Shown here: piece by piece, positions 10,402 through 59,211 of the stretch
Numbering within the stretch: the first letter of the stretch is position 1
Layout of the letters: each line of letters begins with the position of its first letter
Origin: Tillus elongatus
Lineage: Eukaryota > Arthropoda > Insecta > Coleoptera > Cleridae
Direction of reading: 5' to 3'
Assembly: GCA_964006375.1 (NCBI GenBank)
Contig: OZ023264.1
Coordinates: forward strand, 178,257,131 to 178,321,130
Length of the DNA stretch: 64,000 nucleotides
Notes under the pieces: model-generated
Database searches by the model: none
What the model was told of the DNA's origin: nothing
What the model saw: the letters and a program-made list of their open reading frames with translations, nothing else
Program-made: the position numbers and the translations under genes

Positions 10402-10407
10402 AATATT
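10402..10407. repeat. Target-site duplication, left copy (AATATT)
   Basis: AATATT directly left of the element tip, repeated at 28766-28771. The uninterrupted paralogue has one AATATT (47648-47653) between the same flanks. A 6-bp duplication is what Polinton/Maverick integrases produce. Confidence 0.93.
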
Positions 10408-10437
10408 AGTAGGTAATGCGGCACTTTGAGCAGACAG

Positions 10438-10460
10438 TGACGTCACAGGAAGTGACGTCA
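10438..10460. promoter_or_regulatory. Paired TGACGTCA (CRE-type) palindromes at left tip
   Basis: TGACGTCA occurs at 10438-10445 and 10453-10460, and again at 10748-10755 and 10845-10852. The right repeat has it at 28713-28720, 28728-28735 and 28439-28446. This is the consensus for CREB/ATF bZIP dimers. The 15-bp paired spacing is kept at both tips. A role in transcription, replication or transposase binding is inference. Confidence 0.6.
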
Positions 10461-10690
10461 CGGCGCCGGCGCCACGCCCTGGCGCCGGCGCCACGCCCTG
10501 GCGCCTGCCCTGGCGCCGGCGCCACGCCCTGGCGCCTAGCCACGCCCTGGCGCCTAGCCACGCCCTGGCGCCTGCCCTGGCGCCTGCCCTGGCGCCTGCC
10601 CTGGCGCCTGCCCCGGCGCCTGCCCCGGGCCCGGCGCCTAGCCACGCCCCGGGCGCCAGCCCCGGCGCCGGCGCCCAGCCACGCCCTGGG
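10457..10690. repeat. GC-rich GGCGCC tandem array, left
   Basis: Roughly 12-14 bp units of the type gccctggcgcct, with GGCGCC palindromes recurring about every unit, at about 80 % G+C in an otherwise about 30 % G+C region. Open frames here (Arg/Ala/Pro-rich) are artefacts of the repeat. Confidence 0.93.
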
Positions 10691-10939
10691 CCAGACAGTC
10701 ACATCCGTGTTATTCCTAAGGTCATTGACCTGTCTTTGGCCAGACAGTGACGTCACATGACTTGTGCCAGACAATCACATCCAGACAGTCACATTTACAT
10801 TTAGCCGTGTTATTCCTAAGGCCATTGACCTGTCTAGGAAACTGTGACGTCACACGACTTGGGCCAGACAGTCACATGCAAACATTCCAAAGTGTCTAAC
10901 CTATTACTTCAAATTATTATATTTTGAAAAAAACCATTT

Positions 10940-11011
10940 GGTGCAGGTGAGTTTCGAACCCGGGGCATTCAGATGGGAGGCAACGATGCTACCCGTTGAG
11001 CTAAGCAGACG
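10940..11011 (-). other. tRNA-like sequence in left TIR (points outward)
   Basis: On the minus strand a box A-like TAGCTCAACGG is followed about 37 nt later by a box B-like GGTTCGAAACT, and the 3' end reads CTCCA. The acceptor and anticodon stems do not pair well, so it is not a credible functional tRNA. It is more likely a pol III promoter relic or a tRNA-derived segment. The mirrored copy at 28281-28352 is almost identical. Confidence 0.5.
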
Positions 11012-11582
11012 CTTGTTAATTTATTGTTTTAGGCTGGTATATATATATACGACTACAAACAAACCATACATGTAACATAATTAAAGTTTATTATTAGACA
11101 AATGGATGATTTACAAAATAATGTTTAATATTAGAGGCTGCTGAACCAAAACGGAGGAAAATGGCGGAATGAAAGATGGAAGCCTGTGATACCTTACAAA
11201 CCATACATGTAACATAATTAAAGTTTATTATTAGACAAATGGATGATTTACAAAATAATGTTTAATATTAGAGGCGGAACCAAAACGGAGGAACCAAAAT
11301 GGCGGAAAATGGCGGAATGAAAGATGGAAGCCTGTGATACCTTAAGTTGACATCCCTGACATTATAAAAATGGCGGCTTTCGCTGATAAAGAATGGCGGC
11401 TTTCGTTCTTAAAGATGGTGCCTTTTGTTGATAAAGATGGTTGAAGACTCCATTATTTAAAGATACGTCACCCCAACCTAGCCGACAAATGAGAGTGAGG
11501 TTGATAAGCGAGAATAATGGTATTGCCGACAAATGAGAGTGAAGGTTGATAAGCGAGAATAATGGTATTGGTCGAAGACTCG

Positions 11583-12890
11583 GAAGATCCGTGAGATGTA
11601 CGCTGGAACCAACACATGCACGGTGTTAAGGAGGCCAAATCAAATTGGAATATACAATAAAATGGCCACTTCCGGTCTAAACTTTAAATCCTTGTATCTT
11701 TTCAACGACAAGTGATAGAAATGAACCGACTTTAAAAATATATCGTTTCGTAACAAGGTCTACAAGAAACCGAGATAAAAAACTTTAAACCCTTATCGCG
11801 GAAGATCCGTGAGATGTACGAGAGAACCAACACATGCACGGTGTTAAGGAGGCCAAATCAAATTGGAATATACAATAAAATGGCCACTTCCGGTCTAAAC
11901 TTTAAATCCTTGTATCTTTTCAACGACAAGTGATAGAAATGAACTGACTTTAAAAATATATCGTTTCGTAACAAGGTCTACAAGAAAATGAGATAAAAAA
12001 CTTTAAACCCTTATCGCGGAAGATCCGTGAGATGTACGCTGGAACCAACACATGCACGGTGTTAAGGAGGCCAAATCAAATTGGAATATACAATAAAATG
12101 ACCACTTCCGGTCTAAACTTTAAATCCTTGTATCTTTTCAATGGAAAGTGATAGAAATGAACTGACTTTAAAAATGTATCGTTTCGTAACAAGCTCTACA
12201 AGAAAATGAGATAAAAAACTTTAAACCCTTATCGCGGAAGATCCGTGAGATGTACGAGAGAACCAACACATGCACGGTGTTAAGGAGGCCAAATCAAATT
12301 GGAATATACAATAAAATGGCCACTTCCGGTCTAAACTTTAAATCCTTGTATCTTTTCAACGACAAGTGATAGAAATGAACTGACTTTAAAAATATATCGT
12401 TTCGTAACAAGGTCTACAAGAAAATGAGATAAAAAACTTTAAACCCTTATCGCGGAAGATCCGTGAGATGTACGAGAGAATCAACACATGCACGGTGTTA
12501 AGGAGGCCAAATCAAATTGGAATATACAATAAAATGGCCACTTCCGGTCTAAACTTTAAATCCTTGTATCTTTTCAACGACAAGTGATAGAAAGGAACCG
12601 ACTTCAAAAATGTATCGTTTCGTAACAAGCTCTACAAGAAAATGAGATAAAAAAACTTTAAACCCTTATCGTGGAAGATCCGTGAGATGTACGCTGGAAC
12701 CAACACATGCACGGTGTTCAGGAGGCCAAATCAAATTGGAATATACAATAAAATGACCACTTCCGGTCTAAACTTTAAATCGTTATATCTTTTCAATGGA
12801 AAGTGATAGAAATGAACTGACTTTTAAAAATATATCGTTTCGTAACAAGCTCTACAAGAAAATGAGATAAAATGATTTAAAGTTACGTCC
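11583..12890. repeat. 218-bp tandem repeat, six units (left TIR)
   Basis: The gaagatccgtgagatgtac landmark occurs at 11583, 11801, 12019, 12237, 12455 and 12674 (period 218-219). Units alternate in a few diagnostic positions (cgctggaacc versus cgagagaacc; tggccac versus tgaccac), suggesting amplification of higher-order blocks. A partial seventh copy lies at 13146-13220. Not coding. Confidence 0.95.
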
Positions 12891-13680
12891 CCCATTAAAA
12901 CAAACCATTCATAAAGCTTTTGTTATTAGACATAAGACATAATAATTAATATGTTTAATATTAGACTATTAGATTTCGCATGAAGTTCAGAAACATACTG
13001 TAGGGGGCCCCTTGATGGGTAAATGGTATTCGTGTTTGAGCTTGTCTAGAATACAGCCGTTAGAAGTATGACATCATCCACAAACCTGTTCCACAAACCT
13101 GTTTGAGCTTTGTCTGTACGGTCGTTATCTAGTGTAATTTCCGTTAGATCCGTGAGATGTACGCTGGAACCAACACATGCACGGTGTTAAGGAGGCCAAA
13201 TCAAATTGGAATATACAATTTTAGTACACCCTCTTAGACTTATTGAAGTTGACGGTACAGGCAGTTGTCAAGCGTAGGCAACGTCCACAAACTATAATGA
13301 GTTTAATCTAAAGTGAATAGATATTTTTATTATTTGAATCCATTGGAGGCTAGGGTCTTATAAAACGTATATAAAATTAGTAGATATCATGGGTTATTAC
13401 AAATGGAAAGTTTATTCTACGTGACACTCATCAGACGTAGGTAATAGCTTATATTTGTTAAACGTAAAAATTAAAAACTCTAATATAAAAAACTAAACAC
13501 AACCTAACCAAACCCAGTTGAAAAGCTTGATATTAACCTGAGATACCAGTGATATACACTTAACCTGAAGCTAAACAAATACGACATACAAGTGCATTCA
13601 AAGAAAGAATAGTCTCCTTAATATTTTACCCATCAACTCAGGACAACCTAGAACAAACTTCTCTGCTGGTGAGAAATCAA

Positions 13681-13929
13681 ATGGTAGATGCACTCATGAA
13701 TGAGGTGAAACGTTTAGGTAAAATTAAAGTTAGTCTACAAGTCAAAATGGAAAGCATCTACGCTGGAGATTATGAAAATGAATTTTCTGTGCATCCTAGG
13801 AATATGACTGAAAAACAAAATGGATTCGATGTTTTTGATGAAATGGTTTGTGCACTCATTGAAAAAGTAGAAACAGATGAAGGATATTATGTCATGGAGT
13901 TTGAGATAAATATTTGTAAAATTCACTAA
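13681..13929 (+). CDS. 82-residue protein, weakly like a viral PolB N-terminal module
   Basis: The first in-frame ATG is taken as start. The frame lies 92 bp inside the end of the left inverted repeat, and poly(A) signals follow near 13995. The pattern is amphipathic helix (VDALMNEVKRLG), beta strand (KIKVSLQVKME), acidic loop, helix (FDVFDEMVCALIEKVE), strand (YVMEFEINICKI). This order resembles the small alpha/beta module at the N-terminus of the large arthropod virus-like DNA polymerase proteins, also suggested for the ORF at 22.5 kb. That similarity is from memory and weak. It may be a remnant or a free-standing accessory protein. No TATA box is clear upstream. Confidence 0.5.
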   Translation: MVDALMNEVKRLGKIKVSLQVKMESIYAGDYENEFSVHPRNMTEKQNGFDVFDEMVCALIEKVETDEGYYVMEFEINICKIH

Positions 13930-14332
13930 TGTTTTCGAATTATTTGTAAAAAAAAAAAATACATAGAATTTCGAATTGATTATATGTGTATGAAATAAAT
14001 AAAATATGTAAAGAATTACCAACTATTTTTTTGTTAATGGAACGAGTTATTAATTTCATTACAGCTATCAAAATATTTCAGTGGTTTGTGTTATCTGAGT
14101 AAAATTATTAGTCATGCATTGCTGCTATCAATTAAGTGGTTTGTGAATAGAAACATAATGTCGCAATTTCTCATTATTTATTTCATAAATTATCAACTGA
14201 GTAAAATTACACAATGTTAAATATGTTGTTATTTAGTTTTTCAACAATATTACATTTTCCTATGAAACAGTTATTTTTAAACAATTCAGAATTCTTCAAT
14301 TAATAGAACACAAATGATAATTGAATTTAAGC
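13930..14332. other. Intergenic spacer
   Basis: Very AT-rich; holds the poly(A) signals of the flanking convergent genes. No other structure recognised. Confidence 0.6.
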
Positions 14333-15415
14333 TTATTTTTCTAACAAATCAAGTAGTTTTTGCACAGAATCATAAGTTTCTAATTCTGAAAGTTGTGGGA
14401 AACTGTTCAAAGAATTTATTTCTGTTAATAGCTCATTACCGGTCCAAGGGGAATCATCAACATCTAATGTTCGGAGAATCTCTCCGACTGGGTCGACATC
14501 TCGTTGGGTTTTACAGTCGTCTTCCAAAAACCCAACAATATTCATATTTTCACTAGCTAGGGACTTATTATCGAAATCATCAGTGGTCCACGGGGAATCA
14601 TCAACATCTAATGTTCGGAGAATCTCTCCGACTGGTTCGACATCTCGTTGGGTTTTACAGTCGTCTTCTAAAAACCCATCAATATTCATATTTTCACTAG
14701 CTAGGGACTTATTATCGAAATCATCAGTGGTCCACAGGGGATCATCAACATCTAATGTTCGGAGAATCTCTCCGACTGGGTCGACATCTCGTTGGGTTTT
14801 ACAGTCGTCTTCTAAAAACCCATCAATATTCATATTTTCACTAGCTAGGGCCTTATTATCGAACTCATCAGTGGTCCACGGGGAATCATCAACATCTAAT
14901 GTTCGGAGAATCTCTCCGACTGGTTCGACATCTCGTTGGGGGTTTCCTTTCACTTTATTCGAAACAACAATAGCTTTCATAATTTCTTCTTCACTGGATA
15001 TGCTGAGTGCATTATTTTCAAATTTACAAACGACACTGTTTTCAGAGGTAGCTTTCAACATAAAAATGTTATCACCAACATTGTATATGTCTTTGACACC
15101 TTTAACCATCAGAAAAACCCCATTATCTTGAGCAAACTCTTCTGTATTATTTTCAAGAAATCGCATTTCTTGGTTAAATTTTTCATTTATATTATTTAGA
15201 ATTTCCAAACTGTTCGCCCATTCTATTAGATTTCTTGATTTTTTCTTGACCAAACCACACTGATGGAGGACTGTAACAATTTCATTTACTCTTCTCTTTG
15301 GTATATTTAGTAAGTGACAAGCTTCGTTTATATCAACACTTTGCTTTTTCTTGAAGTACTCAATGAATTTGTTCGTTCGCACTGTCAGAAAACGTTGACG
15401 TCTAGGCTTGTACAT
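14333..15415 (-). CDS. E2F-like transcription factor with 48-residue acidic repeats
   Basis: 360 residues, intronless. Residues about 27-67 form an E2F-type winged helix: DINEACHLLNIPKRR, then NEIVTVLHQCGLVKKKSRN and IEW, aligning with the cellular hallmark of KRR, a recognition helix and K-K-S-N-I-W. The RRxYD DNA-contact motif reads RRVNE, so Tyr-Asp became Asn-Glu. Residues about 70-92 could be a coiled coil and about 98-131 (GVFLMVKGVKDIYNVGDNIFMLKA) resemble the marked-box dimerisation fold. From about 159 to 330 lie four near-identical acidic repeats with a DDSPWT core, a plausible activation region. A DP-like partner is not present. Cellular E2Fs bind with DP to S-phase gene promoters; here the likely role is inducing a replication-competent state. 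Minus-strand TATAAAT at 15460-15454; divergent with the gene at 15873. Confidence 0.82.
   Translation of the reverse strand: MYKPRRQRFLTVRTNKFIEYFKKKQSVDINEACHLLNIPKRRVNEIVTVLHQCGLVKKKSRNLIEWANSLEILNNINEKFNQEMRFLENNTEEFAQDNGVFLMVKGVKDIYNVGDNIFMLKATSENSVVCKFENNALSISSEEEIMKAIVVSNKVKGNPQRDVEPVGEILRTLDVDDSPWTTDEFDNKALASENMNIDGFLEDDCKTQRDVDPVGEILRTLDVDDPLWTTDDFDNKSLASENMNIDGFLEDDCKTQRDVEPVGEILRTLDVDDSPWTTDDFDNKSLASENMNIVGFLEDDCKTQRDVDPVGEILRTLDVDDSPWTGNELLTEINSLNSFPQLSELETYDSVQKLLDLLEK
14441..14940. repeat. 144-bp in-frame tandem repeat inside the E2F-like gene
   Basis: The ggtcca landmark recurs at 14441, 14585, 14729 and 14873, exactly 144 bp apart, giving four copies of a 48-residue unit. Copies differ at only a few bases, so the amplification is young relative to the rest of the element. 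Confidence 0.95.
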
Positions 15416-15872
15416 GATTGAAACAAACTAACAGAAAAACACAGACAGATAGAATTTATAACCAAATAAAAAAGATGTTCAACCTTCGAAAATATGTTAT
15501 TCTCAGGAAATGCCAAGAAAAATAACTAATTGCGAATGTGTTTTTCAAAAAATTAATTATCTAGGGAAATGGCCCCAAATATGTTTTTGTTATCCTTAGG
15601 AAACGGTCAAAAAAAAAGATTAAGCCAAACGATAAGCTGAGTTCCTAGTAACCACAATTATATTTTCGAAAATATATTATCTTAGGAAAATGGTCAAAGA
15701 TTGTACCAAACAAGTAGATGACCTTATCTAATGCCCACTAACATGTTTTTCGAAAATATGTTTACAAAATTATACAAAACAACTGATTAGCTGTGAAGGG
15801 GTAAGTATATAAGGCTGTATTGTAGAAAAGAGATTTATATCAACATCGTAGTTAAGCCTTGTAGTAACAAAA
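15416..15872. promoter_or_regulatory. Divergent promoter with iterated TTCGAAAATAT motif
   Basis: The 457-bp gap separates the E2F-like gene (minus; TATAAAT at 15460-15454) and the OB-like gene (plus; TATATAAG at 15806-15813). Between the TATA boxes an approximately 30-bp motif (ttcgaaaatatgttat plus aggaaatgg) recurs in varying form near 15485, 15541, 15583, 15664 and 15746. The shared array suggests co-regulation of the two genes. It is not a canonical E2F site (TTTSSCGC), so E2F autoregulation is not supported by eye. Confidence 0.65.
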
Positions 15873-16172
15873 ATGGCTCAAGTTAACTTTTTAAATAATT
15901 TAGCTTCTCTTCCTGAAACGATCAAGTTTAGTGAATTAGAAGTGAATAAAAAATATAAAATTTTCAACATTTCACGAATGGATACAAAATTTGGACAGGC
16001 AGTATTGGTGCATCTGGAACATGGACGAGTTTTCTTGCCAAAAAGGGTGTCTGATGCCATCACGGAAAATACGATGAAGGAATTGAGTGATGGATATGCA
16101 GTCATTTTCCATGGTATGAAAGAGATAAATGGACTCAAAGCAACACCAGATTTCACGTTTGAAAAGTTGTAA
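15873..16172 (+). CDS. 99-residue OB-fold-like protein, putative ssDNA-binding
   Basis: Starts at the first ATG, about 60 nt after TATATAAG (15806), with AATAAA at 16225. The core runs KYKIFNISRMDTKFGQAVLV, then HLEHGRVFLPKRV, then a helix (ITENTMKELSDG), then AVIFHGMKEINGLKATPDF. The K-Y-x-I...T-K-F-G...L...LP-x-R pattern recurs in many uncharacterised arthropod proteins encoded by virus-like repeats, and the strand layout fits an OB-type barrel. Single-stranded DNA binding in replication is an inference. It is divergently paired with the E2F-like gene. Complete and intronless. Confidence 0.75.
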   Translation: MAQVNFLNNLASLPETIKFSELEVNKKYKIFNISRMDTKFGQAVLVHLEHGRVFLPKRVSDAITENTMKELSDGYAVIFHGMKEINGLKATPDFTFEKL

Positions 16173-16230
16173 TTGTATTTTATTGAAAATGTAATTTGAA
16201 ATATTATAAGCATTTTGTTTGCAAAATAAA

Positions 16231-16879
16231 AGACATTATTTAAATTTCTGTGTTTTACCATACAATTTACCTGCTGCATATATATTCCCAAAATTTTTGA
16301 GTCATTAGGGTCTTCAAAGAATAGGCCATAGAGAAATACAATTATATGTTGGTTTCTGAATCAAAGGAATAAAAACAGACAATTCTAACAGAGGTTGCAT
16401 TTTTTTTTAATAGTATTTCTACAAAAGTAATCTCACCAAAATCTAGAAATATCCAACAAAAATAAAATTACAATAAAAATCACAGACATTTGAATTTACT
16501 AGGATTGGCGTAATGACTAATTATTGAAGGTATCGTACGTTTCTGAAAAGCAATTTATGTTAAGAGATATAAGAGAGAATATTTTGGATTCTGCGTTAAG
16601 TGTTCTATGAAAACAAATAGGATAGGATATTCATTACAAATCGATTGAATCAAGACAAGTGATGATTATATAGAGATAAAAGGAAATATTTTAATTGAAA
16701 ATCGTGCAAGTAGCTGAATCTTTTTATGGGATTGCTCTATACTTTGCATTTATGATTTTTACAAAAGTTTTTAAAATAAAAATTAATTATTTCTTTTTAA
16801 ATATACTTTTAAAATAAATGTTTTTATGAATAGTAAGAAAAAAACAAAAAATCATCGAAATAGAGTTTTATTAAATTGT
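16231..16879. other. Intergenic, AT-rich
   Basis: No open frame of note and no structured repeat recognised. Confidence 0.5.
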
Positions 16880-17265
16880 TACAAATAATACATCATACAA
16901 TCAGCTTATTATATTGTTACAAATAATACATCATACAATCAGTTAAAGGATGAACAACTGAAAACAGGTCAGATACATAGAGCAGTTTTTCAGCAAAAAA
17001 CCAGTCATAGAGCAATTTTTCAGCTGAAAAACAGATCAGATACATAGAGCCGTTTGAACAGCTGAAAAACCAGTCATAGAGCAGTTTTTCAGCTAAAAAA
17101 CAGATCAGATACATAGAGCCGTTTGAACAGCTGAAAAACCAGTCATAGAGCCGCTTTCAGATGGAAAAAACAGGTCAGATACATAGAGCCTTTTTTCAGC
17201 AAAAACCAGGTCATATACATAGAGCCGTTTGAATCAACTGAAAAAACAGACAGATACATATATAA
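16880..17265. repeat. Degenerate tandem repeat (cagatcagatacatagagc type)
   Basis: Irregular units of about 35-75 bp built from agatacatagagccgttt and cagctgaaaaaccagtcata. At least five occurrences of atacatagagc or tcatagagc lie between 16970 and 17225. The 65-residue minus-strand frame over it repeats with the unit (LICF.AEKLLYDWFF) and is probably not a gene. Confidence 0.8.
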
Positions 17266-17519
17266 CGGGGGGTATATAAGATACCCTACAATTTTCTATT
17301 TCCATTAACCGTAAAAAAAATGTTAATAAACTATATAACTAGAAAGCAAATTGAACAGATTAGTATGTTTCCATCAAAAAATTAACATAAATACAGCACT
17401 TATTTATATAACTAGATTCTAACAGATTAAAATTAAATTAAACATGTAAATTATTATTTTATTACTAGAAGAAAATCGAACAGACATTAGTATGTTTTCT
17501 TGAAAAATTACATAATTCA

Positions 17520-17936
17520 TCACTTCTTACCAAGCCAATTTAAGGTATGCACCCAAAGACCAAAGTCATCAATAAAGAGTTTGACTGGAAACATATTGAT
17601 TAATTTTCTGCAGCAGACATCATCCACGAAAGTTTCAATTTTGAACCATAAATTGAAAGGAATTCTGAAAATCTGCCCATCAGTAGCAATCACTATAGGT
17701 GGATTCACAGATAGCTCGTCGTCCAGACTCACGGAAAATTCTTCGGGGTTTATTTGTTTGAAATGTTTGAGTTTTAAGCCAAATTGACAACCAATTCTTC
17801 TGATAAAAACATTTTGTTTAGTAGGCAACAGCTGTTTGTTCATGTAGTCTTGAGCTCTCTCAAACTCAGACATTTGTGAGAGTCTACAATGCTCTTGATA
17901 CTCTGTATGTGACAACAGTATGATTTTTTTAGACAT
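17520..17936 (-). CDS. Unknown 138-residue protein
   Basis: Starts at ATG 17936. Upstream on the same strand TATAAATAC (about 17983-17975) and an arthropod initiator TCAGT (17952-17948) sit about 31 nt apart, a textbook core promoter, so the gene is probably real. The sequence is soluble-looking with a basic N-terminus (MSKKIILLS), a central acidic stretch (INPEEFSVSLDDELSV) and an aromatic C-terminal half (FRIPFNLWFKIETFVDD, then LFIDDFGLWVHTLNWLG). No transmembrane segment or signal peptide. I do not recognise the family. It is convergent with the OB-like gene across the repeat at 16.9 kb. Confidence 0.72.
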   Translation of the reverse strand: MSKKIILLSHTEYQEHCRLSQMSEFERAQDYMNKQLLPTKQNVFIRRIGCQFGLKLKHFKQINPEEFSVSLDDELSVNPPIVIATDGQIFRIPFNLWFKIETFVDDVCCRKLINMFPVKLFIDDFGLWVHTLNWLGKK

Positions 17937-17947
17937 GGTAAATAACT

Positions 17948-17983
17948 ACTGATACAAAAGAAGAAAACCCTAGCGTATTTATA
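17948..17983 (-). promoter_or_regulatory. TATA plus TCAGT core promoter
   Basis: Minus-strand TATAAATAC with TCAGT about 31 nt downstream and the ATG 12 nt after that. Confidence 0.7.
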
Positions 17984-17984
17984 G

Positions 17985-18787
17985 TAGAAGTTGTTATTAT
18001 TTTTACGACACAAACAAGATAAGGATATGACACTCAGGGGAGGGTTTCACGACAAATAGTAAACGTCAATGTTACTGCCTTTTTTCACAGTGAAAATGGA
18101 AGAGTACGGTGATATTTGCTTAATTAAGAATTTTCCAGTGTGCGTATGATTTTTAATTACAGATTATCTGATGGAAATTTCACATATATTGCAGAACTAT
18201 TTTATGCCTGTGAGTATTTTTCTGAGAGAAAGGCGCAACATTTTAAATATTTCTATACGTTACGCCGACGTTGCTGTGTTGGTGAGCCTACCGTTTAAGA
18301 AAAAAAAAGAAGAGAAGAAAAACATAAGTAAAGTACACCAACTGAAGCTCACAAGTCATTTAGATATACGGGATATCAAGATGATTTTCAAATCTCAGCT
18401 ACTTGTAGGTATATAAATGATTGATTTTATGTAATTTCAGAGGCTACAAGACTGAGTCCTATTTTTAAAAGCTTATAAAATAAAAGACCGAGACATAAAC
18501 TTACAAAAACATATGGCAGAACGCCTCAATAAAATATTCAACCAACTCTTAATCTGAAAAACACAAAACTTTCACATATGAACTTCAATATATCTTAGCA
18601 TTCGTGTAAATATGATCAAATTTTCATAGGACCGAAAACGGGCCGATGAAAATATAAGCCTATTCTATTTTTTTTTTTTTTTTTTTTTGAAGCTTTAAAG
18701 TACTACGAGCATTATGTAAACTGTTCCATTGATAAATTATATGTACGTGACTGTAGAGATGTTTATCAACGGTTCATTCTGCGAATG
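17985..18787. other. Intergenic, AT-rich
   Basis: An 81-codon frame at 18171-18416 has no recognisable domain and no promoter; not called. A poly-T run lies at 18670-18688. Confidence 0.5.
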
Positions 18788-20099: not shown

Positions 20100-20400
20100 A
20101 TAGGATGTGGTTATTATTGTCTTACTTATTTTTTCTAGTTTTTATTTTTTATGAACAGTGGTTAATTTGATTTACAAATCAGCATATCTCTCAAAGAAAA
20201 ATATCATTCAGGATATTGTGGTTAGTGCCTTACTTATTTTTTTTCTCGTATTTTATTTTTCTAAACACGCTAGCGGTTATTTTGATTTTGCAAATATCTC
20301 TCAAGAAAATATTATTCAGGATATCGTGGTAGTTTTATTTTTTCCTTTGATTTATCAAGCAAAAATATTTTCAGGAAAGAGGGCACCTTATTTTCTTTGA
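20100..20400. repeat. Imperfect direct repeats upstream of the 20.46-kb gene
   Basis: Units of about 100 bp built from atatctctcaaagaaaaata, attcaggatattgtgg and cttacttattttt recur two to three times. The 80-residue hydrophobic frame over them repeats along with the units and looks like an artefact. Confidence 0.65.
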
Positions 20401-20421
20401 TTCAATATTTTTCTGTGAGCT

Positions 20422-20455
20422 TATAAAAAGGGTACACAGAGCTATAATATTCAGT
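20422..20455 (+). promoter_or_regulatory. TATA plus TCAGT core promoter
   Basis: TATAAAAAG at 20422-20430 and TCAGT at 20451-20455, 29 nt apart, with the ATG only 8 nt after the initiator. A very short 5' leader is implied. Confidence 0.75.
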
Positions 20456-20462
20456 GAAAAAT

Positions 20463-20771
20463 ATGATTTGCTACCTATATAATTATACATGTTACAAAGA
20501 ATACTGTGAACGGGTGTTTTGTAATCAAATTGGTCATTACGACTTTTTTACGGGTGAACGTAAACGTCATTATTACACGAGGTTTCTGTGTTTTGAGTGT
20601 GTTCAAAAATTCCCTTGTTCAACGTTTTTCATGGACGAAATGATGGTAATTATTAAGGCCCAAGAATTTTCGAAGAGATTTACATTTTATCATAGACGCT
20701 GCAGCGAGTGCGGAATAAATTTATATTATATCAAAAAGGTAACAACACTGAGAAGTTTGATTTTTCAATAA
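20463..20771 (+). CDS. 102-residue Cys-rich protein, likely zinc-binding
   Basis: Start at ATG 20463, just after a strong core promoter. Eleven Cys in total. Pairs such as CFEC and CSEC, with CYKEYC and His residues near the N- and C-terminal pairs, suggest two zinc knuckles or ribbons (CYKEYCERVFC, then LCFECVQKFPC, then HRRCSECG). The fold is unassigned. The stop lies 14 nt before the next ATG, so the two frames may be read from one transcript. A GTAACA donor-like site near 20740 would also allow a spliced fusion. Confidence 0.65.
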   Translation: MICYLYNYTCYKEYCERVFCNQIGHYDFFTGERKRHYYTRFLCFECVQKFPCSTFFMDEMMVIIKAQEFSKRFTFYHRRCSECGINLYYIKKVTTLRSLIFQ

Positions 20772-20785
20772 ATTTCCAAACCACA

Positions 20786-21268
20786 ATGAAGTTTGTAGTA
20801 ATCGACATCCAAGGGTTCTGCATCCCAGAGTTTGTCCCTAAGGAATTGGTTATATATGATGGGAACAAGACACGTTATTTTCTGTTCAGGCCATCAATCC
20901 CTTTATACAATTTGGCTTCACACACTTTAAGACACGTGGAATTTGTTCAAAAATTTCACCATGGTCTGGACTACAACATAGGAAACAGCAGATTAAGTGA
21001 ATTACCGTTCATTTTCAAAAAATACATTCTTGACGAAGGAATCGACAGAATTTATGTCAAAGGTGCCAATAAACATAAGTTCGTTGAAGATCAGCTCAGA
21101 GTAATTGGTAAGGCCGTTGCCATAATAAATGTAGAACAATCATCGGAGTGCCCAAAATTTGTAAGAGGATTCCCCAGTTGTCCGAGTCACAAAAACAAAA
21201 AATCTATGTGCAGTATCAATAATTGTATCGCATTGTATAATTGGCTTTTGAACTTGTTACCAAAATAA
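20786..21268 (+). CDS. 160-residue DIQGF-type protein, RNase H-fold-like
   Basis: Start chosen at ATG 20786. An in-frame extension upstream overlaps the Cys-rich gene and has no ATG. N-terminus MKFVVIDIQGF is followed by FVPKELVIYDG. The centre has HVEFVQKFHHGLDY and IDRIYVKGANKHKFVED. The C-terminus has CPSHKNKKSMCSINNCIALYNWLL. The conserved VDIQGF start, a KG-x-x-K element and a CxxH...C...N...W tail recur in a large uncharacterised arthropod family linked to virus-like repeats. The beta strand with Asp at the N-terminus recalls RNase H-fold nucleases, but catalytic competence is unproven. Poly(A) signals lie at 21264 and about 21275. Confidence 0.72.
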   Translation: MKFVVIDIQGFCIPEFVPKELVIYDGNKTRYFLFRPSIPLYNLASHTLRHVEFVQKFHHGLDYNIGNSRLSELPFIFKKYILDEGIDRIYVKGANKHKFVEDQLRVIGKAVAIINVEQSSECPKFVRGFPSCPSHKNKKSMCSINNCIALYNWLLNLLPK

Positions 21269-21294
21269 ATAGAAATAAATTCATAATTGTAGAA

Positions 21295-22300
21295 ACTCTT
21301 TGATTTTTAAGATAGTTGAAACGTAAAATATTTTAAGAAGTTACAGAGTTTTTTAACAAAACCTCCAGTTGGATACAGTTTAATCATTATGAATAACTTA
21401 ATATGTGGAGATTTAATTGTTTGCTTTTAACTACTTATATGCCATACCGCAGCCAGTGGAATCTGACGTCACACACACACACACACAATTACTTATATAA
21501 ACCGCGGCAGCTGTTAAAGTCGAGATAAGCTATTGTTAGATCGTCCGGACGTAAATAGTAAACAAAACTAAAGCAGATAAAGGTAATACTGGTAGCGAAT
21601 TTTTATAGAAATAATATGACATAAAAACATTTTTATTTTAAGGAGTAAATATACATTTTTGCTCTATAGTCTCCTCTTAATATCATAAACTTACCAAATT
21701 TGTTTATCATAGATTTTCCTAAATTAATTTTCTGGCTAACACACAATCGATTCATTATGGTTCATATATAAAACCAACCTCGCGCTCATTTGAGATTTTT
21801 TTTTTAAACCAAAAGTCAGGATCTCCTATTAGTGAGTTTTTCTAAGAAAGTTCACCAAAAACGCTACAGTTAAATTATGTTGCAATAGATGTCGTAACTT
21901 TACGTGTTGATAAACATGGACAAAAATTATTTTGTTTAGCAATTAAAAATAGATCTGGCACCTTATAAACTCCCAATTTAAACTTATATACTTTTAGCAT
22001 GTCCAAATATAATAAATCTCAACACAAAGTCTCAAACTATACAAATGATATCTTATAAAGCTTCTAAGTGCGTGTTAATTATCAAGTCATTTAACTTTAA
22101 AACACTGATTTTCTAAGATTGTACCAGGTATGAAAAAGTATATGTTTTCCTAATTTCTATCGAATTGTTTTTCATATTTATCTACAGGTGTACATTTAAA
22201 ATCCAAATATGAAAAATTCTTTAAATGTACACATATCAAAAACCCTGTTATATTAAGTTTTTAGATAATTTCACTACGTTCAGCAGTGGCTCCACTCTAC
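21295..22300. other. Intergenic with a (CA)n run and an LFR fragment
   Basis: (CA)n at about 21470-21487. TATATAAACC near 21495 and a GC-richer leader follow, but no open frame is attached. About 21770-21865 is a degraded fragment of the host LFR repeat (cgcgctcatttgag, then caggatctcctattagtgag), showing that host repeats have invaded the element. Confidence 0.6.
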
Positions 22301-22304
22301 ATGT

Positions 22305-22420
22305 AACTTAACCATTTTATGTAAGAAAAAAAAAATCCGTGTTTGCGTATATAAGCTCGGAATTTACCAGTTTTTCCTATTGATTTCATTCTTTCCCCCT
22401 AAACTGTATTCTCGTTGTAA
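22305..22420 (+). promoter_or_regulatory. Duplicated promoter, copy 1
   Basis: TATATAAG at 22348-22355 within a block (aagctcggaatttaccag and ttttcctattg) that recurs at 22775-22890. It lies upstream of the ORF at 22528. Confidence 0.7.
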
Positions 22421-22527
22421 GATGAGATACAGTGAATCGTGCTCGTTACAAGTGAAAAAAGAGTGCTTTACGTAGTGAAATTCACAAATCTAAAGTGTGT
22501 GAACCGTGGGAAGTTGAACAAGTTTAT

Positions 22528-22779
22528 ATGTTAACTCAAGCTTTTAAAAACAGAATGGCTACCTATCGTATTAGTATGGATGGTAGTGATATACGTCTTG
22601 CCATGGAAAGTGTAAAGCATAAATTGTTTCATTTGATGGAAGCTGCTTTAGTCAAACACGATACAGTTAAAATGAATCTAGAATTGGTTGGTTTGTATGT
22701 GCTCCAAAGTCAAAATAAAAATAAAGTCACTAAAAATAAAAAATACAGGATGGTGCGCAGTAGCGTTACCTTCATGTAA
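22528..22779 (+). CDS. 83-residue ORF resembling the N-terminal module of virus-like PolB proteins
   Basis: First in-frame ATG is 22528; the frame is open back to 22456. Features: an aromatic/basic start (MLTQAFKNRMATYRI), helix (AMESVKHKLFHLMEAALVKH), then TVKMNLELVGLYVLQS. A helix followed by (I/V)KxNxEL is the usual opening of the large family B polymerase-like proteins of arthropod virus-like elements, judged from memory. The natural proteins are over 1,000 residues, so this is a truncated relic or a free module. Its stop leads straight into a duplicated promoter block, so the polymerase body may have been replaced by that duplication. Confidence 0.5.
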   Translation: MLTQAFKNRMATYRISMDGSDIRLAMESVKHKLFHLMEAALVKHDTVKMNLELVGLYVLQSQNKNKVTKNKKYRMVRSSVTFM

Positions 22780-22890
22780 GTTAAGCATTTTATGTAAGAA
22801 AAAATCTTGTTTGTGCATATAAGCTCGGAATTTACCAGTTTTTTCCTATTGTTTTTTTTCATTTATTTCCCTAAAAACTATATTCTCATT
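22775..22890 (+). promoter_or_regulatory. Duplicated promoter, copy 2
   Basis: CATATAAG at 22817-22823 in a block about 90 % identical by eye to 22305-22420, 470 bp further on. The sequence after it holds only short frames (one of 93 codons with no recognisable domain). Confidence 0.65.
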
Positions 22891-23540
22891 GTATAATGTA
22901 TAATGTATATATTAACAATGAAACAGGCCAATGTCACCTGAATGACACAGGGATGTTCATGTACGTCAAAAAATTACCAATAAGAACGACAATAGCACAC
23001 ACAATAAGCATAACAATTAAGGAAAATTTTTCCTTAAATAATACAAAACAAAAGATACTTATAAAACACACTTATAACGTCTATAACGTTCAAAAGATAA
23101 GAGCTGTAGAATCCATATCCAATTCCAATGTAAACTGTTTACTAACGCTTTGGGGCCTGTCGACTGCCCCACTATAATTCAATTGTTTTAATTAAATATC
23201 CTGGCCAAATTAAAAACAACTTAAGAAGTTATGACTTTAGATATGATATTTCTGAGGTTTCAAATGGAGCTTCGAATGTAGACCGCAAGCAAAATATTGT
23301 GCCTTTTCAAAACGATAACCCTGAGGATACGAGCAAGATAACCACTGAAAAATAAGATCTTGGAAACGACAAAAATAAATGATAGTCTGACCACTGAGAA
23401 TAAACTTTGACAGGCTGTTTTCGAAAATTTAAACCGCAAGCAATTGTGCACTTTTGATAATCTAACCACTGAGGATGTTTTTCGAAATAGATATCGCATT
23501 GCCCTTTAGCAAACTTAATCTAGACAACAGGAAAAATTTA
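22891..23540. other. MMP upstream region with iterated motif
   Basis: No gene called. An ACCACTGAGgAT-like word recurs near 23322, 23339, 23390 and 23464, each within a larger imperfect repeat (accgcaagcaa...attgtgc). These may be upstream regulatory repeats of the metalloproteinase gene. Confidence 0.45.
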
Positions 23541-23547
23541 CTTACCG

Positions 23548-23630
23548 TATAAAAGAGGGGTGGACGGTTTTGCGACAGTAGTCATCTAGATACAGACGTG
23601 GCTGGTATAAATACAGGGGAAGTGATCAGT
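23548..23630 (+). promoter_or_regulatory. Tandemly duplicated core promoter of the MMP gene
   Basis: TATAAAAG at 23548-23555 and TATAAATA at 23606-23613 lie in a roughly 60-bp imperfect duplication that also repeats gttttgcgacagtagt (about 23567 and 23630). TCAGT occurs at 23626-23630. Confidence 0.65.
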
Positions 23631-23693
23631 TTTGCGACAGTAGTTGTGGAGAATCCTATAGAAGTTCTTGATAGAGACAATAGCCAATCAGTT

Positions 23694-25376
23694 ATGTTCA
23701 AGTTACTGTTAATTATATGTGTGCTAAGTGTCTCCTTTGGGGAACATATAAGTGAAAAAGACAGAGAATTGGCTCTCAAGTATCTCGTCAGATATGGGTA
23801 CTTAAGAAATGGTGCCTTTAACAATAGTCAATCATCAATGTTGCAAAATACACAGCCTTTCAAGGATGCTTTGAACATGTTTCGCGTGCTTTACAATTTA
23901 ACCGAAAGTGAGAACCTGACTATTTCAGACATTAACCTGATGAAACGTAATCGATGTGGTGAAAAAGATATAGGCAACATTTTCATAACTTCACAACCTA
24001 TATGGAAAAAGAAAACATTAAAGTGGTACATACATCATTCAGATCCTTTGATACGTCTGATAACACAAAAAGCATTTAAACAATGGGAGCAGTATATTGA
24101 TTTGAATTTTGTAAGAACAAACATTTATTCTGAAGCTGATATAGGGATAAGTTTTTGCGACAACAACCATCGTTACTTGTTAAAAGATCAACCATGTGGA
24201 TATCCATTTGGTGATTCCGTTTTAGGACATACTTATTTTCCGAACGCTGCCAACACTCCAATTGAAATCCATCTAAGTAGTAATAAATCATGGAACTATC
24301 AAACATATACATCGGAAGGCAATGACACGTCGTACTATTTAGTGCTTTTACATGAACTAGGACACGGTTTAGGACTCACCCATGCTTACGACACAAACTC
24401 TCTTATGTTCGCTTATTATGGAAACAGCATGTCTAATGACGATATTCAACGGATTCAAGAATTATATGGACAACGTTCTACTACAACTACAGCGAAGACA
24501 ACAGAGACTACAACGAGGGTGGCAAAGACTACCACAAGGTCGACACCAAAGACGCCCACACCAGCGAAGACAACAGAGTCTACAACGAGGGTGGCAAAGA
24601 CTACCACAAGGTCGACACCAAAGACGACCACAACAGTACCTAAAACAATAACCAAATCAAATATGGACTTGTGCGATTATATAGACAAGATCAGGCCTTT
24701 AGTTATTATTAACCATAACATGTATCTGTTTTATAAGAAATGGGTCTGGGTTGTACCATTAGATAATATGAAAGGTCCCTATACAGAGCCAAAACTTCTT
24801 ACAGATTGGTTTCCATATTTGAAGGGTTCTTTTAAAGAAATTAGACATGTTTACCAACGACCTAGTGGAGAAGTGGTTATGTTTACCAACGATGGAACCT
24901 TCGCCCTTGTTGATTTTCCCAGCATACAAACAAAACACATTGCCAAGTTCCGTAATGTCAACTATTTAGGTGCTTTACAGTTTGACAAGATAAATGCGAT
25001 CGTAAATACGTATACAGGAAAAACCATAATATTTCACTCGGATAACATGTACGAAATCGTTAGTGAGTCTAGAGCTCTGTTTTATAGGCAAGAAGAAGGC
25101 TATATACACTCCTTTTCTCCCGAATTCCCTGCTAAAATAGATGGAGTATTTAGGTATACAAATGGTAGATTGTATGTGTTTCGGAAAAATAAATATTACG
25201 AATTTGATGAGTTTTCCAATCAGGTAGTTAGCATAGGCCAAAAGGATTTATCGATATTTGGTATCCAATGCCCGAGCCGTAGTCTGTACGAACAACTGAG
25301 ACTCCTATTACAGAAGATTGTCAACTATACAGAGAACGATCAACAATCAGATGTTGAAGATTATGATTATATATAG
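23694..25376 (+). CDS. Secreted matrix metalloproteinase (matrixin) with hemopexin domain
   Basis: 560 residues from ATG 23694. The 32 codons upstream in frame cover the TATA box and are not used. Order: signal peptide (MFKLLLIICVLSVSFG); propeptide with cysteine switch RCGEKD (Cys about 88); catalytic domain with HELGHGLGLTH (zinc ligands about His220, 224, 230; catalytic Glu221) and Met-turn SLMF; Thr/Lys-rich linker with two in-frame repeats (about 261-322); hemopexin-like propeller (about 325-525) closed by Cys at both ends; acidic tail. It is complete and intact, cleaving extracellular matrix proteins after propeptide removal. No RxKR furin site is evident before the catalytic domain and no membrane anchor is seen. 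Intronless, unlike host MMP genes, suggesting capture as cDNA or a viral gene. AATAAA at 25399-25404. Confidence 0.95.
   Translation: MFKLLLIICVLSVSFGEHISEKDRELALKYLVRYGYLRNGAFNNSQSSMLQNTQPFKDALNMFRVLYNLTESENLTISDINLMKRNRCGEKDIGNIFITSQPIWKKKTLKWYIHHSDPLIRLITQKAFKQWEQYIDLNFVRTNIYSEADIGISFCDNNHRYLLKDQPCGYPFGDSVLGHTYFPNAANTPIEIHLSSNKSWNYQTYTSEGNDTSYYLVLLHELGHGLGLTHAYDTNSLMFAYYGNSMSNDDIQRIQELYGQRSTTTTAKTTETTTRVAKTTTRSTPKTPTPAKTTESTTRVAKTTTRSTPKTTTTVPKTITKSNMDLCDYIDKIRPLVIINHNMYLFYKKWVWVVPLDNMKGPYTEPKLLTDWFPYLKGSFKEIRHVYQRPSGEVVMFTNDGTFALVDFPSIQTKHIAKFRNVNYLGALQFDKINAIVNTYTGKTIIFHSDNMYEIVSESRALFYRQEEGYIHSFSPEFPAKIDGVFRYTNGRLYVFRKNKYYEFDEFSNQVVSIGQKDLSIFGIQCPSRSLYEQLRLLLQKIVNYTENDQQSDVEDYDYI
24480..24650. 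repeat. In-frame Thr-rich minisatellite in the MMP linker
   Basis: A unit of about 78 bp (acaacgagggtggcaaagac to ccagcgaagacaacagag) is repeated twice with a partial third copy, encoding TTRVAKTTTRSTPKT-type units. Such O-glycosylation-prone linkers are usual between catalytic and hemopexin domains. Confidence 0.85.
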
Positions 25377-25404
25377 AGCACAATAAGTATAACCTATTAA
25401 TAAA

Positions 25405-26454
25405 TATTATTTTGGCATTAACGATGTTTTCATTGTACCCTTAAGTTTCTAATATCACCCTTTTCCTATGAAATATTTTTCACATCATTTTATACAAAAT
25501 AAAATATAGCATGTGTAATCAAAGCTTTGTTTGCGATGTTTGTATCTTTTTTCGTATGACTTTAAGGTCATTCAACGGAAAATAAAACCGCTAACGGAGC
25601 ATTGAGACCAACTCACAAGGTTATTTCAACAGCTGTGAGCAAAATATGTTGGCTAACAAGGTTAATTTCGGGAAGTGCTAAGTATAGCCGTAGTTGGAAG
25701 CGATATCGCTGTTACCACTAGAGGTATTGTTGCCAGCTCTACTTTCAACAGATTCTTTAAATTAAACCGATTTCAATAAGACTTAAGAATATAGATATTT
25801 TATTGTACGCATGTACATTTGTTAAATTTGGTTTCTGCTTACCTAGACCAGTGATATGACACCAAACATGTAGGACTTTAACCAACAAAAAAAAAAAAAT
25901 AAAAACTGATTAAGAGCATGCGCCTCACAATATATTTAAATTGTAGGCATCAAGACGTTTTAAGTAAGATCACGTGGAGATTGAGTCATTAAAGAAAAAA
26001 AATTTATTGGGCGCCTGCATCCCCCACAATATTTTAAAAATTCTAGATGCTAAGACGATTTAAATAAGGCCAATACTGGTGTTTCTATACGCTTACTGCT
26101 ATTTAAAATTCTAGGTAACACAGCTGTAATAAATATATATTTAACCAGCAATCATAAAGGCTAATTTTTTTAATTCGTCCATATCAGCGTGTAATATCAT
26201 AAATTGTTGAAATCGTTATATAGACACCGAATGTTAAATAAATATTTATGGGATTACACAGATTTTTCTCACTGTCGAACGTCTTGTCAATATTAAAGAT
26301 GTTATTGTTGTCTATTTTTAAAATTAGTTAAGGAGTTTGTATAAGAAAATTTGCTACAAGATATATTTTAAGATTTGTCTTAAAACGGTCCTCTCTGGTT
26401 TGTTTATAGCTATACATTTTTCTTGACGTATTGCACTAAAAAAACAGACGTTTG
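25405..26454. other. Non-coding, possibly decayed polymerase body
   Basis: No open frame above background. By position it could hold further decayed polymerase sequence upstream of 26354, but I could not recognise any motif. Confidence 0.4.
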
Positions 26455-26595
26455 CACACACCTTACACGCACGCTCATAATTAGACTGCATGATGTGTTC
26501 ACCTCTTAGATTATCATAAAATCCAGACTGTGATGGAAGCTTAGTCTCATTTAATTTATCAAAGGAGTCTACATACGAATATGGAGAAAAATTAT
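26455..26595 (-). pseudogene. Family B (protein-primed type) DNA polymerase fragment
   Basis: Within the minus-strand frame 26710-26354, about 46 residues read NFSPYSYVDSFDKLNETKLP, then FYDNLRGEHI, then YERACKV. This follows the conserved stretch of Polinton/adintovirus-type DNA polymerase B (F-P-Y-x-Y-x-D-S...L.ET.LP...FY..L....I...Y..A..VW) that precedes the palm. The sequence on each side loses similarity at once, and the expected DLYL...DVLLLADVFE block is absent. It is a relic 250 bp inside the right inverted repeat. The motif comparison is from memory; a profile search would decide. Confidence 0.68.
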
Positions 26596-28280
26596 GAATT
26601 AACTGCTTACTACTTTGAAATAACCCCGTTAAAATTTTGTTGACAGCGCCCAGAATAATTGTAAAACTAACTTTGTATCCTGAACTAGGCCAGTAAATTC
26701 TGATTATCAATCCGACATCCGTTCTATGCGAGACAGCGTTGTCAGTTTGGGGTTAAAACCGTTTATCTTAGCTTGAGCAATGTTGACATATTTTTCCTTC
26801 TTTTACTCGGATATATATTATTAACAGACTTGTCTAAATGTTATGTCGTATTTGTTTAGCTTCAGGTTAAGTGTATATCACTGGTATCTCAGGTTAATAT
26901 CTAAGCTTTTCAACTGGGTTTGGTTAGGTTGTGTTTAGTTTTTTATATTAGAGTTTTTAATTTTTACGTTTAACAAATATAAGCTATTACCTGATGATCA
27001 TTCAGAATAAACTTTCCATTTGTAATAACCCATGATATCTACTAATTTTATATACGTTTTATAAGACCCTAGCCTCCAATGGATTCAAATAATAAAAATA
27101 TCTATTCACTTTAGATTAAACTCATTATAGTTTGTGGACGTTGCCTACGCTTGACAACTGCCTGTACCGTCAACTTCAATAAGTCTAAGAGGGTGTACTA
27201 AAATTGTATATTCCAATTTGATTTGGCCTCCTTAACACCGTGCATGTGTTGGTTCTATCGTACATCTCACGGATCTTCCGCGATAAGGGTTTAAAGTTTT
27301 TTATCTCAGTTTCTTGTAGAGCTTGTTATGAAACATACATTTTTGAAGTCAGTTCATTTCTATCACTTGTCGTTGAAAAGATACAAGGATTTAAAGTTTA
27401 GACCGGAAGTGGCCATTTTATTGTATATTCCAATTTGATTTGGCCTCCTTAACACCGTGCATGTGTTGGTTCCAGCGTACATCTCACGGATCTTCCGCGA
27501 TAAGGGTTTAAAGTTTTTTATCTCATTTTCTTGTAGACCTTGTTACGAAACGATATATTTTTAAAGTCGGTTCATTTCTATCACTTGTCGTTGAAAAGAT
27601 ACAAGGATTTAAAGTTTAGACCGGAAGTGGCCATTTTATTGTATATTCCAATTTGATTTGGCCTCCTTAACACCGTGCATGTGTTGGTTCCAGCGTACAT
27701 CTCACGGATCTTCCGAGTCTTCGACCAATACCATTATTCTCGCTTATCAACCTTCACTCTCATTTGTCGGCAATACCATTATTCTCGCTTATCAACCTCA
27801 CTCTCATTTGTCGGCTAGGTTGGGGTGACGTATCTTTAAATAATGGAGTCTTCAACCATCTTCATCAGCGCACCATCTTTAAGAACGAAAGCCGCCATTC
27901 TTTATCAGCGAAAGCCGCCATTTTTATAATGTCAGGGATGTCAGCTTAAGGTATCACAGGCTTCCATCTTTCATTCCGCCATTTTCCGCCATTTTGGTTC
28001 CTCCGTTTTGGTTCCGCCTCTAATATTAAACATTATTTTGTAAATCATCCATTTGTCTAATAATAAACTTTAATTATGTTACATGTATGGTTTGTAAGGT
28101 ATCACAGGCTTCCATCTTTCATTCCGCCATTTTCCTCCGTTTTGGTTCAGCAGCCTCTAATATTAAACATTATTTTGTAAATCATCCATTTGTCTAATAA
28201 TAAACTTTAATTATGTTACATGTATTGTTTGTTTGTAGTCGTATATATATATACCAACCTAAAACAATAAATTAATAAGC

Positions 28281-28352
28281 GTCTGCTTAGCTCAACGGGT
28301 AGCATCGTTGCCTCCCATCTGAATGCCCCGGGTTCGAAACTCACCTGCTCCA
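28281..28352 (+). other. tRNA-like sequence in right TIR (points outward)
   Basis: Mirror of 10940-11011 with box A-like TAGCTCAACGG and box B-like GGTTCGAAACT. Both copies would be transcribed toward the element tips. Confidence 0.5.
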
Positions 28353-28497
28353 AATGGTTTTTTTCAAAATATAATAATTTGAAGTAATAGGTTAGACACT
28401 TTGGAATGTTTGCATGTGACTGTCTGGCCCAAGTCGTGTGACGTCACAGTTTCCTAGACAGGTCAATGACCTTAGGAATAACACGGATGTGACTGTC

Positions 28498-28712
28498 TGG
28501 CCCAGGGCGTGGCTGGGCGCCGGCGCCGGGGCTGGCGCCCGGGGCGTGGCTAGGCGCCGGGCCCGGGGCAGGCGCCGGGGCAGGCGCCAGGGCAGGCGCC
28601 AGGGCAGGCGCCAGGGCAGGCGCCAGGGCGTGGCTAGGCGCCAGGGCGTGGCGCCGGCGCCAGGGCAGGCGCCAGGGCGTGGCGCCGGCGCCAGGGCGTG
28701 GCGCCGGCGCCG
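28498..28712. repeat. GC-rich GGCGCC tandem array, right
   Basis: Counterpart of 10457-10690 with a different unit order and about one to two fewer units. Bounded by TGACGTCA palindromes at 28439 and 28713. Confidence 0.93.
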
Positions 28713-28765
28713 TGACGTCACTTCCTGTGACGTCACTGTCTGCTCAAAGTGCCGCATTACCTACT

Positions 28766-28771
28766 AATATT
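28766..28771. repeat. Target-site duplication, right copy (AATATT)
   Basis: Follows the terminal CT of the element directly; pairs with 10402-10407. Confidence 0.93.
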
Positions 28772-40963: not shown

Positions 40964-41038
<75 letters not shown>

Positions 41039-42644: not shown

Positions 42645-42727
42645 TTATTTAACAAAGCAATCGATCAGGTGACTCGTAATCGGCGGTGGTGAAACGTTCA
42701 TACATTTTTTGTTGTAACTATATTTCG

Positions 42728-42811
<84 letters not shown>

Positions 42812-56731: not shown

Positions 56732-56830
<99 letters not shown>

Positions 56831-58129: not shown

Positions 58130-59211
<1,082 letters not shown>

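What the first reader, a model, noticed from the sequence alone, without database searches (positions are those of the whole stretch)
10402..28771. Complete 18.4-kb virus-like element with boundaries proved by an empty-site paralogue in the same window
Seen directly: inverted tips (AGTAGGTAATGCGG...), AATATT on both sides, and a reverse-oriented paralogue of the flanks at 47.3-49.1 kb with a single AATATT at the join. Length, AG...CT ends and 6-bp duplication are Polinton/Maverick traits. Having both the occupied and the unoccupied state on one contig makes the boundary call unusually secure.
Basis: partly seen in the sequence, partly recalled or inferred. Interest (0 to 1): 0.88.

Follow-up and report, generated by a model that had tools for sequence, protein, structure and literature searches.

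The report
Polinton-like element carrying an E2F gene
An 18.4-kb virus-like mobile DNA sits cleanly inserted in what is probably an arthropod genome; it has the ends of a Polinton but no recognisable polymerase or integrase gene, and instead carries look-alikes of an animal cell-cycle switch (E2F), an animal tissue-degrading protease and perhaps a Maelstrom-type protein.

Summary
The element is 10408-28765 (AGTAGG...CCTACT), flanked by AATATT; a reverse paralogue of the flanks (49108-47400, 84.5%) reads through the join with one AATATT. The tips match perfectly inverted for 148 bp; TIRs are 3.2 kb (left) and 1.9 kb (right), differing mainly in the number of 218-bp tandem repeats. Size, long TIRs, 6-bp duplication and an AGT-type tip fit Polinton/Maverick. 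But a six-frame Pfam scan found no PolB, rve integrase, adenovirus-type protease or packaging ATPase. Only two ORFs hold Pfam domains above cut-off: a 360-aa protein with an E2F/DP winged helix and acidic repeats, and a 560-aa matrix metalloproteinase with cysteine switch, zinc site and hemopexin. A third ORF (160 aa) has a predicted DnaQ/Maelstrom-type fold; its best named viral structural matches are an uncharacterised protein of Drosophila-associated adintovirus 2 and ichnovirus proteins. Best reading: a Polinton/adintovirus-lineage element without its replication, integration and packaging genes, moved in trans and carrying host-manipulation genes. A "complete virus" is not shown. No other genomic copy could be examined: the genome search was unreachable in all 15 tries.

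The parts
10402..10407 (.). left copy of target-site duplication AATATT
28766..28771 (.). right copy of target-site duplication AATATT
10408..13588 (+). left terminal inverted repeat, 3.2 kb: GC-rich GGCGCC array at the tip with TGACGTCA words, then 5.9 copies of a 218-bp tandem repeat (11581-12872)
26842..28765 (-). right terminal inverted repeat, 1.9 kb, with 2.4 copies of the 218-bp repeat (27203-27715); 98-99% identical to the left at aligned positions, gaps not counted
14333..15415 (-). 360-aa ORF: E2F/DP winged helix (aa 10-67), then a stretch that might be coiled coil and marked box (not proved), then four acidic repeats, three of them full 48-aa units and the last diverging after about 20 aa
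   Evidence: Pfam E2F_TDP 1.5e-12; PDB E2F-4 1cf7_A 5.5e-5; repeats
23694..25376 (+). 560-aa ORF, matrix metalloproteinase: signal-peptide-like start (by eye), RCGEKD cysteine switch at 87, HELGHGLGLTH at 220, Thr-rich linker, hemopexin
   Evidence: Pfam M10 1.4e-28, hemopexin 2.1e-5; PDB interstitial collagenase 1su3_A 2.5e-22; motifs
20786..21268 (+). 160-aa ORF, predicted DnaQ/Maelstrom-type RNase H fold with E20, C132, H135, C142 invariant in three homologues
   Evidence: two homologues 43/40%; AF2 pLDDT 83.6; fold searches
20463..20771 (+). 102-aa cysteine-rich ORF directly upstream, unknown; length alone within chance range
17520..17936 (-). 138-aa ORF, unknown
15873..16172 (+). 99-aa ORF, unknown; a 133-aa ORF lies antisense at 15878-16279, and which of the two is real (if either) is open
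22456..22779 (+). 107-aa stop-to-stop frame, unknown; length within chance range
13564..13929 (+). 121-aa stop-to-stop frame starting inside the left TIR, unknown; length within chance range
47400..49108 (-). empty-site paralogue of the joined flanks (8968-10407 + 28772-29025)

Best explanation
An element of the Polinton/Maverick (adintovirus) lineage that is non-autonomous for movement: it keeps the ends on which a Polinton-type integrase acts (long TIRs, AGT-type tip, 6-bp duplication) and a set of host-directed genes, but not the polymerase, integrase, protease or ATPase genes (capsid genes untested). Shown: precise insertion, uninterrupted ORFs, E2F winged helix, MMP architecture, no core-gene domain in the Pfam scan. 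Predicted: the fold of the 160-aa protein. Inferred: a related autonomous element or virus supplies integrase, and polymerase and capsid if needed; the E2F-like protein pushes the host cell towards S phase, supplying DNA-synthesis enzymes; the metalloproteinase helps spread through extracellular matrix such as the basal lamina; the Maelstrom-like protein binds RNA and may interfere with small-RNA silencing.
For: Empty site and duplication. The tip AGTAGG...CCTACT differs in one base of six from the (AGT)2//(ACT)2 motif that, with 6-bp duplications, was used to find vertebrate Mavericks (PMC8097293, passages); rve integrases typically give 6-bp duplications (PMC12220804, passages). The best named Foldseek match of the 160-aa model among viral proteins is an uncharacterised protein of Drosophila-associated adintovirus 2 (E 7e-8, 23% identity; rank 2 after an unnamed entry), a Polinton-type virus (PMC8363768, passages). 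E2F and MMP are single uninterrupted frames. In the unique part there are 7 ATG ORFs of 95 aa or more against a mean of 0.45 in 300 simulations (two of the 7 are an antisense pair). The core-gene scan saw E2F and MMP by the same procedure, so it could detect domains. TIR arms differ by 1-2% at aligned positions, so the copy looks young and the missing genes are not simply eroded (inference).
Against: No core Polinton gene links it to the family by sequence. Six-bp duplications and long repetitive TIRs also occur in other DNA transposons (recalled). No second copy or helper element was seen, because the genome search did not complete. No relatives of the E2F or the metalloproteinase were found in the protein search, and none of any of the six proteins tried in viral contigs. 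The fold search against solved structures gave no Foldseek match at E 0.001. The three full E2F repeats differ more at non-synonymous than synonymous sites (0:5, 1:3, 1:4 syn:nonsyn), which gives no sign of purifying selection on that part.
Confidence: 0.6

Rival explanations
1. A self-sufficient small DNA virus or transposon of a lineage other than Polinton, whose replication and integration proteins are among the unknown ORFs or too diverged for Pfam; it replicates with host polymerase in S phase induced by its own E2F.
For: Several ORFs have no assignment; an E2F gene makes sense for an element without a polymerase; ichnovirus proteins share the predicted fold of the 160-aa protein.
Against: No unassigned ATG ORF in the unique part is longer than 138 aa, small for an integrase; tip and duplication come close to the Maverick pattern.
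Confidence: 0.22
2. An ordinary foldback- or other TIR-type DNA transposon that captured E2F and MMP genes passively; the genes are cargo without function.
For: Long internally repetitive TIRs with variable tandem-repeat numbers, a structure described for foldback-like Galileo (PMC3573991, abstract start in the listing); no transposase domain found; E2F repeats show no constraint.
Against: Both genes are uninterrupted single frames and the 160-aa protein has viral structural relatives; size and tip fit Polinton.
Confidence: 0.13
3. Assembly artefact or chimaera: unrelated virus sequence joined into the host contig.
For: None seen.
Against: A duplication at both joins, and an empty-site paralogue that continues across them.
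Confidence: 0.02

Closest known systems
Polinton/Maverick elements (polintoviruses, Adintoviridae)
   Same: 15-20 kb size class, long TIRs, 6-bp duplication, near-(AGT)2 tip, single-frame genes; one protein whose predicted fold matches an adintovirus 2 protein
   Different: No PolB, rve integrase, protease or ATPase found; E2F and matrix metalloproteinase cargo, for which the searches showed me no Polinton precedent (limits of those searches in the Full report section)
Baculovirus and granulovirus matrix metalloproteinases
   Same: Insect DNA viruses carry an MMP (recalled; one search listed granulovirus genome papers, seen as titles and abstract starts only)
   Different: Here in an 18-kb integrated TIR element; relationship to viral or host MMPs not resolved
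Cellular E2F transcription factors
   Same: Winged-helix DNA-binding domain (Pfam 1.5e-12, PDB E2F-4 5.5e-5)
   Different: Repeated acidic C-terminus; marked box not proved; lies in a mobile element
Maelstrom domain and arenavirus nucleoprotein exonuclease
   Different: No sequence match; only 160 aa, so no room for the HMG domain of Maelstrom; other DnaQ exonucleases score as high or higher, so the Maelstrom link rests on the four residues

Membership tests
Polinton/Maverick | 6-bp target-site duplication | tested here: met
   AATATT both sides, once in the paralogue; strictly a 7-bp direct repeat is possible
Polinton/Maverick | terminal inverted repeats of hundreds to thousands of bp | tested here: met
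   1.9 and 3.2 kb, 148 bp exact at the tip
Polinton/Maverick | end motif (AGT)2 or (AG)3 | tested here: inconclusive
   AGTAGG, 5 of 6 to (AGT)2; the motif in PMC8097293 is for vertebrate elements
[quoted passage not shown]
   no DNA-polymerase B domain in the six-frame Pfam scan, E up to 0.01 for 10408-15000 and 0.1 for the rest
Polinton/Maverick | rve integrase | tested here: not met
   same scans
Polinton/Maverick | adenovirus-like protease and packaging ATPase | tested here: not met
   same scans; diverged forms could be missed
[quoted passage not shown]
   no Pfam hit, but these proteins are too diverged for that to be a test; no unassigned ATG ORF in the unique part exceeds 138 aa
E2F/DP | winged-helix DNA-binding domain | tested here: met
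   1.5e-12, 47.5 bits against a cut-off of 25.7
E2F/DP | coiled coil and marked box for dimerisation | tested here: inconclusive
   no Pfam hit and no PDB hit; the single-sequence model is too poor to use (pLDDT 39.6)
Matrix metalloproteinase | M10 catalytic domain with zinc site, cysteine switch and hemopexin | tested here: met
Maelstrom domain | DnaQ-type RNase H fold with ECHC tetrad instead of DEDD | tested here: inconclusive
   fold predicted; E20, C132, H135, C142 invariant in 3 of 3, position 9 is Q in 3 of 3; clustering in space not checked; no sequence match

The most novel reading that the evidence does not exclude
A Polinton-lineage element has exchanged its own replication and packaging genes for a host-manipulation kit: an element-borne E2F that drives cells into S phase, a basement-membrane protease, and a Maelstrom-like RNA-binding protein aimed at piRNA silencing. 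It would live as a satellite of autonomous Polintons, or replicate with the host's S-phase polymerases.
Probability: 0.25. Interest if true: 0.82.

Novelty: new variant of a known kind. Interest (0 to 1): 0.58.

Why it matters
DNA tumour viruses usually free host E2F by binding Rb (recalled); an element that carries its own E2F would be a direct route to the same end and a clear case of cell-cycle control captured by mobile DNA. It also suggests that Polinton-type ends can mobilise cargo that a core-gene search never finds, so such elements would be missed by surveys based on PolB or integrase. A Maelstrom-like gene shared with adintoviruses would be a testable candidate for interference with piRNA silencing.

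Tried and rejected
Own-genome search for other copies (genome search, same request each time): unanswered; so copy number, helper elements and duplications of other copies are untested.

Protein search for E2F: the 7998 candidates sharing most words were scored, none passed (the words were probably dominated by the repeats, an inference). For MMP residues 1-265: 643 candidates, none passed. Since the MMP clearly matches collagenase sequences in the PDB, I take these as limits of the word search or of the database, not as evidence of novelty.

Viral-contig scans with six proteins, a prokaryote genome-contig scan with the 160-aa protein and a tblastn of the MMP in phages found no relative; that these collections hold few arthropod viruses is my assumption.

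The E2F model has pLDDT 39.6: its helix and strand order looks E2F-like but is not evidence. Consensus E2F sites TTTSSCGC (recalled consensus): 0 inside the element, 3 in the window, so the idea that the element's own TIRs hold E2F sites is not supported. [LIF]xCxE Rb-binding words in frames of 60 aa or more: one, FLCFE at 20583, not the LxCxE form. tRNA in the TIR: ARAGORN and Rfam at gathering cut-off negative (in one search a relaxed ARAGORN run gave one implausible 95-base match). Regarded as chance: paramyxovirus-type fusion-protein matches of the 138-aa ORF (best E 0.021), PHROGs matches in the acidic repeats of the E2F protein (best 3.9e-7, no stretch passing alone) and of the 107-aa frame (0.007), DUF5771 (0.007). 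Solved-structure searches with the 99-aa ORF (best E 0.23) and with the alignment of the 160-aa protein (none) led nowhere. Foldseek against PDB: no match of the 160-aa model at E 0.001 (best 0.022, TREX1 homologue).

The adintovirus proposal paper (PMC8502044) is not held, so its gene list was not checked.

Full report
Boundaries. The element runs from 10408 to 28765. Its tips are perfect inverted copies for 148 bp, and AATATT stands on both sides. A reverse-oriented paralogue of the flanks lies at 49108-47400; with the flanks joined it aligns through the junction, 84.5% identical over 1744 BLAST columns, with no gap at the junction and one AATATT. In the left flank 1258 of 1412 aligned bases agree (77 gap columns), in the right flank 211 of 248 (6 gap columns). 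The flank belongs to a dispersed repeat family: five other clusters in the window match parts of it (pieces of 100 bp or more, 67-80%) but stop before and resume after about 160 bp around the junction (for four, for the resuming piece of the fifth, at 41 kb), so one match found in the window shows the empty site. AATATT is palindromic and preceded by T on both sides; a 7-bp direct repeat cannot be excluded, but the inverted symmetry of the tips favours 6 bp.

Repeats in the ends. The left TIR reaches 13588, the right one begins at 26842. Both start with a GC-rich array of GGCGCC units and hold TGACGTCA words, and both hold 218-bp tandem repeats, 5.9 copies left and 2.4 right. Of 9 TGACGTCA words in the window 8 lie in the element, 7 of them in the TIRs; of 39 GGCGCC words 36 lie in the element; a first-order Markov model of the window, 50 runs, gives means of 0.48 and 2.3 for the whole window. 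The copies are not independent, since TIRs and arrays repeat them. In the two blocks aligned, TIR arms agree at 1544 of 1563 positions (124 gap columns) and 426 of 434 (10 gap columns), so the insertion looks recent if the arms were identical at insertion.

Genes. In the unique inner part there are 7 ATG ORFs of 95 aa or more, against a mean of 0.45 in 300 simulated sequences; two of the 7 are an antisense pair (99 and 133 aa). The longest ORF in a simulated sequence had a median of 87 aa, a 95% point of 126 and a maximum of 167, so by length alone the 560- and 360-aa ORFs are beyond chance, the 160-, 138- and 133-aa ORFs are unusual, and the shorter ones are not. The two longest are identified: 14333-15415 (minus), 360 aa, E2F/DP winged helix (Pfam E 1.5e-12; E2F-4 chain E 5.5e-5) followed further on by four acidic repeats, three of them full 48-aa units; and 23694-25376 (plus), 560 aa, a matrix metalloproteinase with a signal-peptide-like start, cysteine switch, HELGHGLGLTH zinc site and hemopexin. 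Both are single uninterrupted frames.

What is missing. A six-frame Pfam scan in four overlapping chunks, stops as X, found E2F, matrixin and hemopexin and, apart from weak cross-matches at the same places (PafC, M66) and one sub-threshold DUF (E 0.007), nothing else (E limit 0.01 and 0.1 in the others). So no protein-primed polymerase, rve integrase, adenovirus-type protease or packaging ATPase is recognisable. Capsid proteins are too diverged for this to be a test.

Comparison. Polintons are 15-20 kb and encode PolB, rve integrase, ATPase and protease (PMC4028283, passages). Intact vertebrate Mavericks have TIRs, 6-bp duplications, intronless ORFs and (AGT)2 or (AG)3 end motifs (PMC8097293, passages). 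The present element meets the structural criteria, nearly meets the end motif, and fails each core gene that could be tested. It therefore looks as if it moves like a Polinton but is not filed as a Polinton; 'Polinton-like, non-autonomous' is the furthest the evidence goes. The shared predicted fold with an adintovirus protein is the only gene-level link.

Function. Inferred: E2F drives S phase; the protease helps spread through extracellular matrix (the basal lamina is described as a barrier to insect viruses in PMC11865517, passages; that paper does not concern a virus-borne metalloproteinase); the Maelstrom-like protein may bind RNA. No E2F consensus site lies inside the element (3 in the window), so its targets would more likely be host genes. 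Searches for a Polinton with E2F: five papers; in PMC2826372, pea aphid genome, passages show that E2F and Polinton stand in unrelated places; the other four seen as listing only; 97 papers hold two of the terms, 20 listed, none of the 20 with the word E2F; two papers; passages of PMC11464507, concern host promoters, and of PMC6418280, unrelated places. for phrases such as 'viral E2F' listed five papers, seen as listing only. Polinton with Maelstrom: two papers, listing only. The library lacks most subscription papers and the adintovirus proposal, so this is absence from these searches only.

Host. Unknown. DUF4817/Tc3-type transposase ORFs in the flanks (their arthropod association is recalled) and the insect-virus relatives of the 160-aa protein suggest an arthropod; this is inference.

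Noticed in passing
10938-11020 (minus) and 28277-28355 (plus): A tRNA-like stretch inside both TIRs, reading towards the tips, with A-box and B-box-like words (recalled consensus) and a T run downstream; ARAGORN by default and Rfam do not call it. It may be a Pol III promoter or a SINE relic.
   Followed up: partly
14376-15131 (plus): A 251-aa stop-to-stop frame antisense to the E2F repeats, probably a by-product of recent 144-bp repeat duplication.
   Followed up: no
8968-10407, 28772-29025, 39795-41917, 47400-49108, 55759-56941, 58134-59290, 60532-62232: A dispersed repeat family with several 67-85% copies in the window; two copies share a stretch of about 160 bp that five other clusters lack.
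   Followed up: partly
7398-8030 (minus), 62995-63744 (minus): DUF4817/Tc3-type transposase ORFs.
   Followed up: no
42645-43043 (minus); 52248-52682 (plus): A GIY-YIG match and a reverse-transcriptase match, both just below Pfam's cut-off, probably retroelement remnants.
   Followed up: no
20463-20771 (plus): Cysteine-rich 102-aa ORF just upstream of the Maelstrom-like ORF, containing FLCFE, a near miss of the Rb-binding LxCxE word.
   Followed up: no
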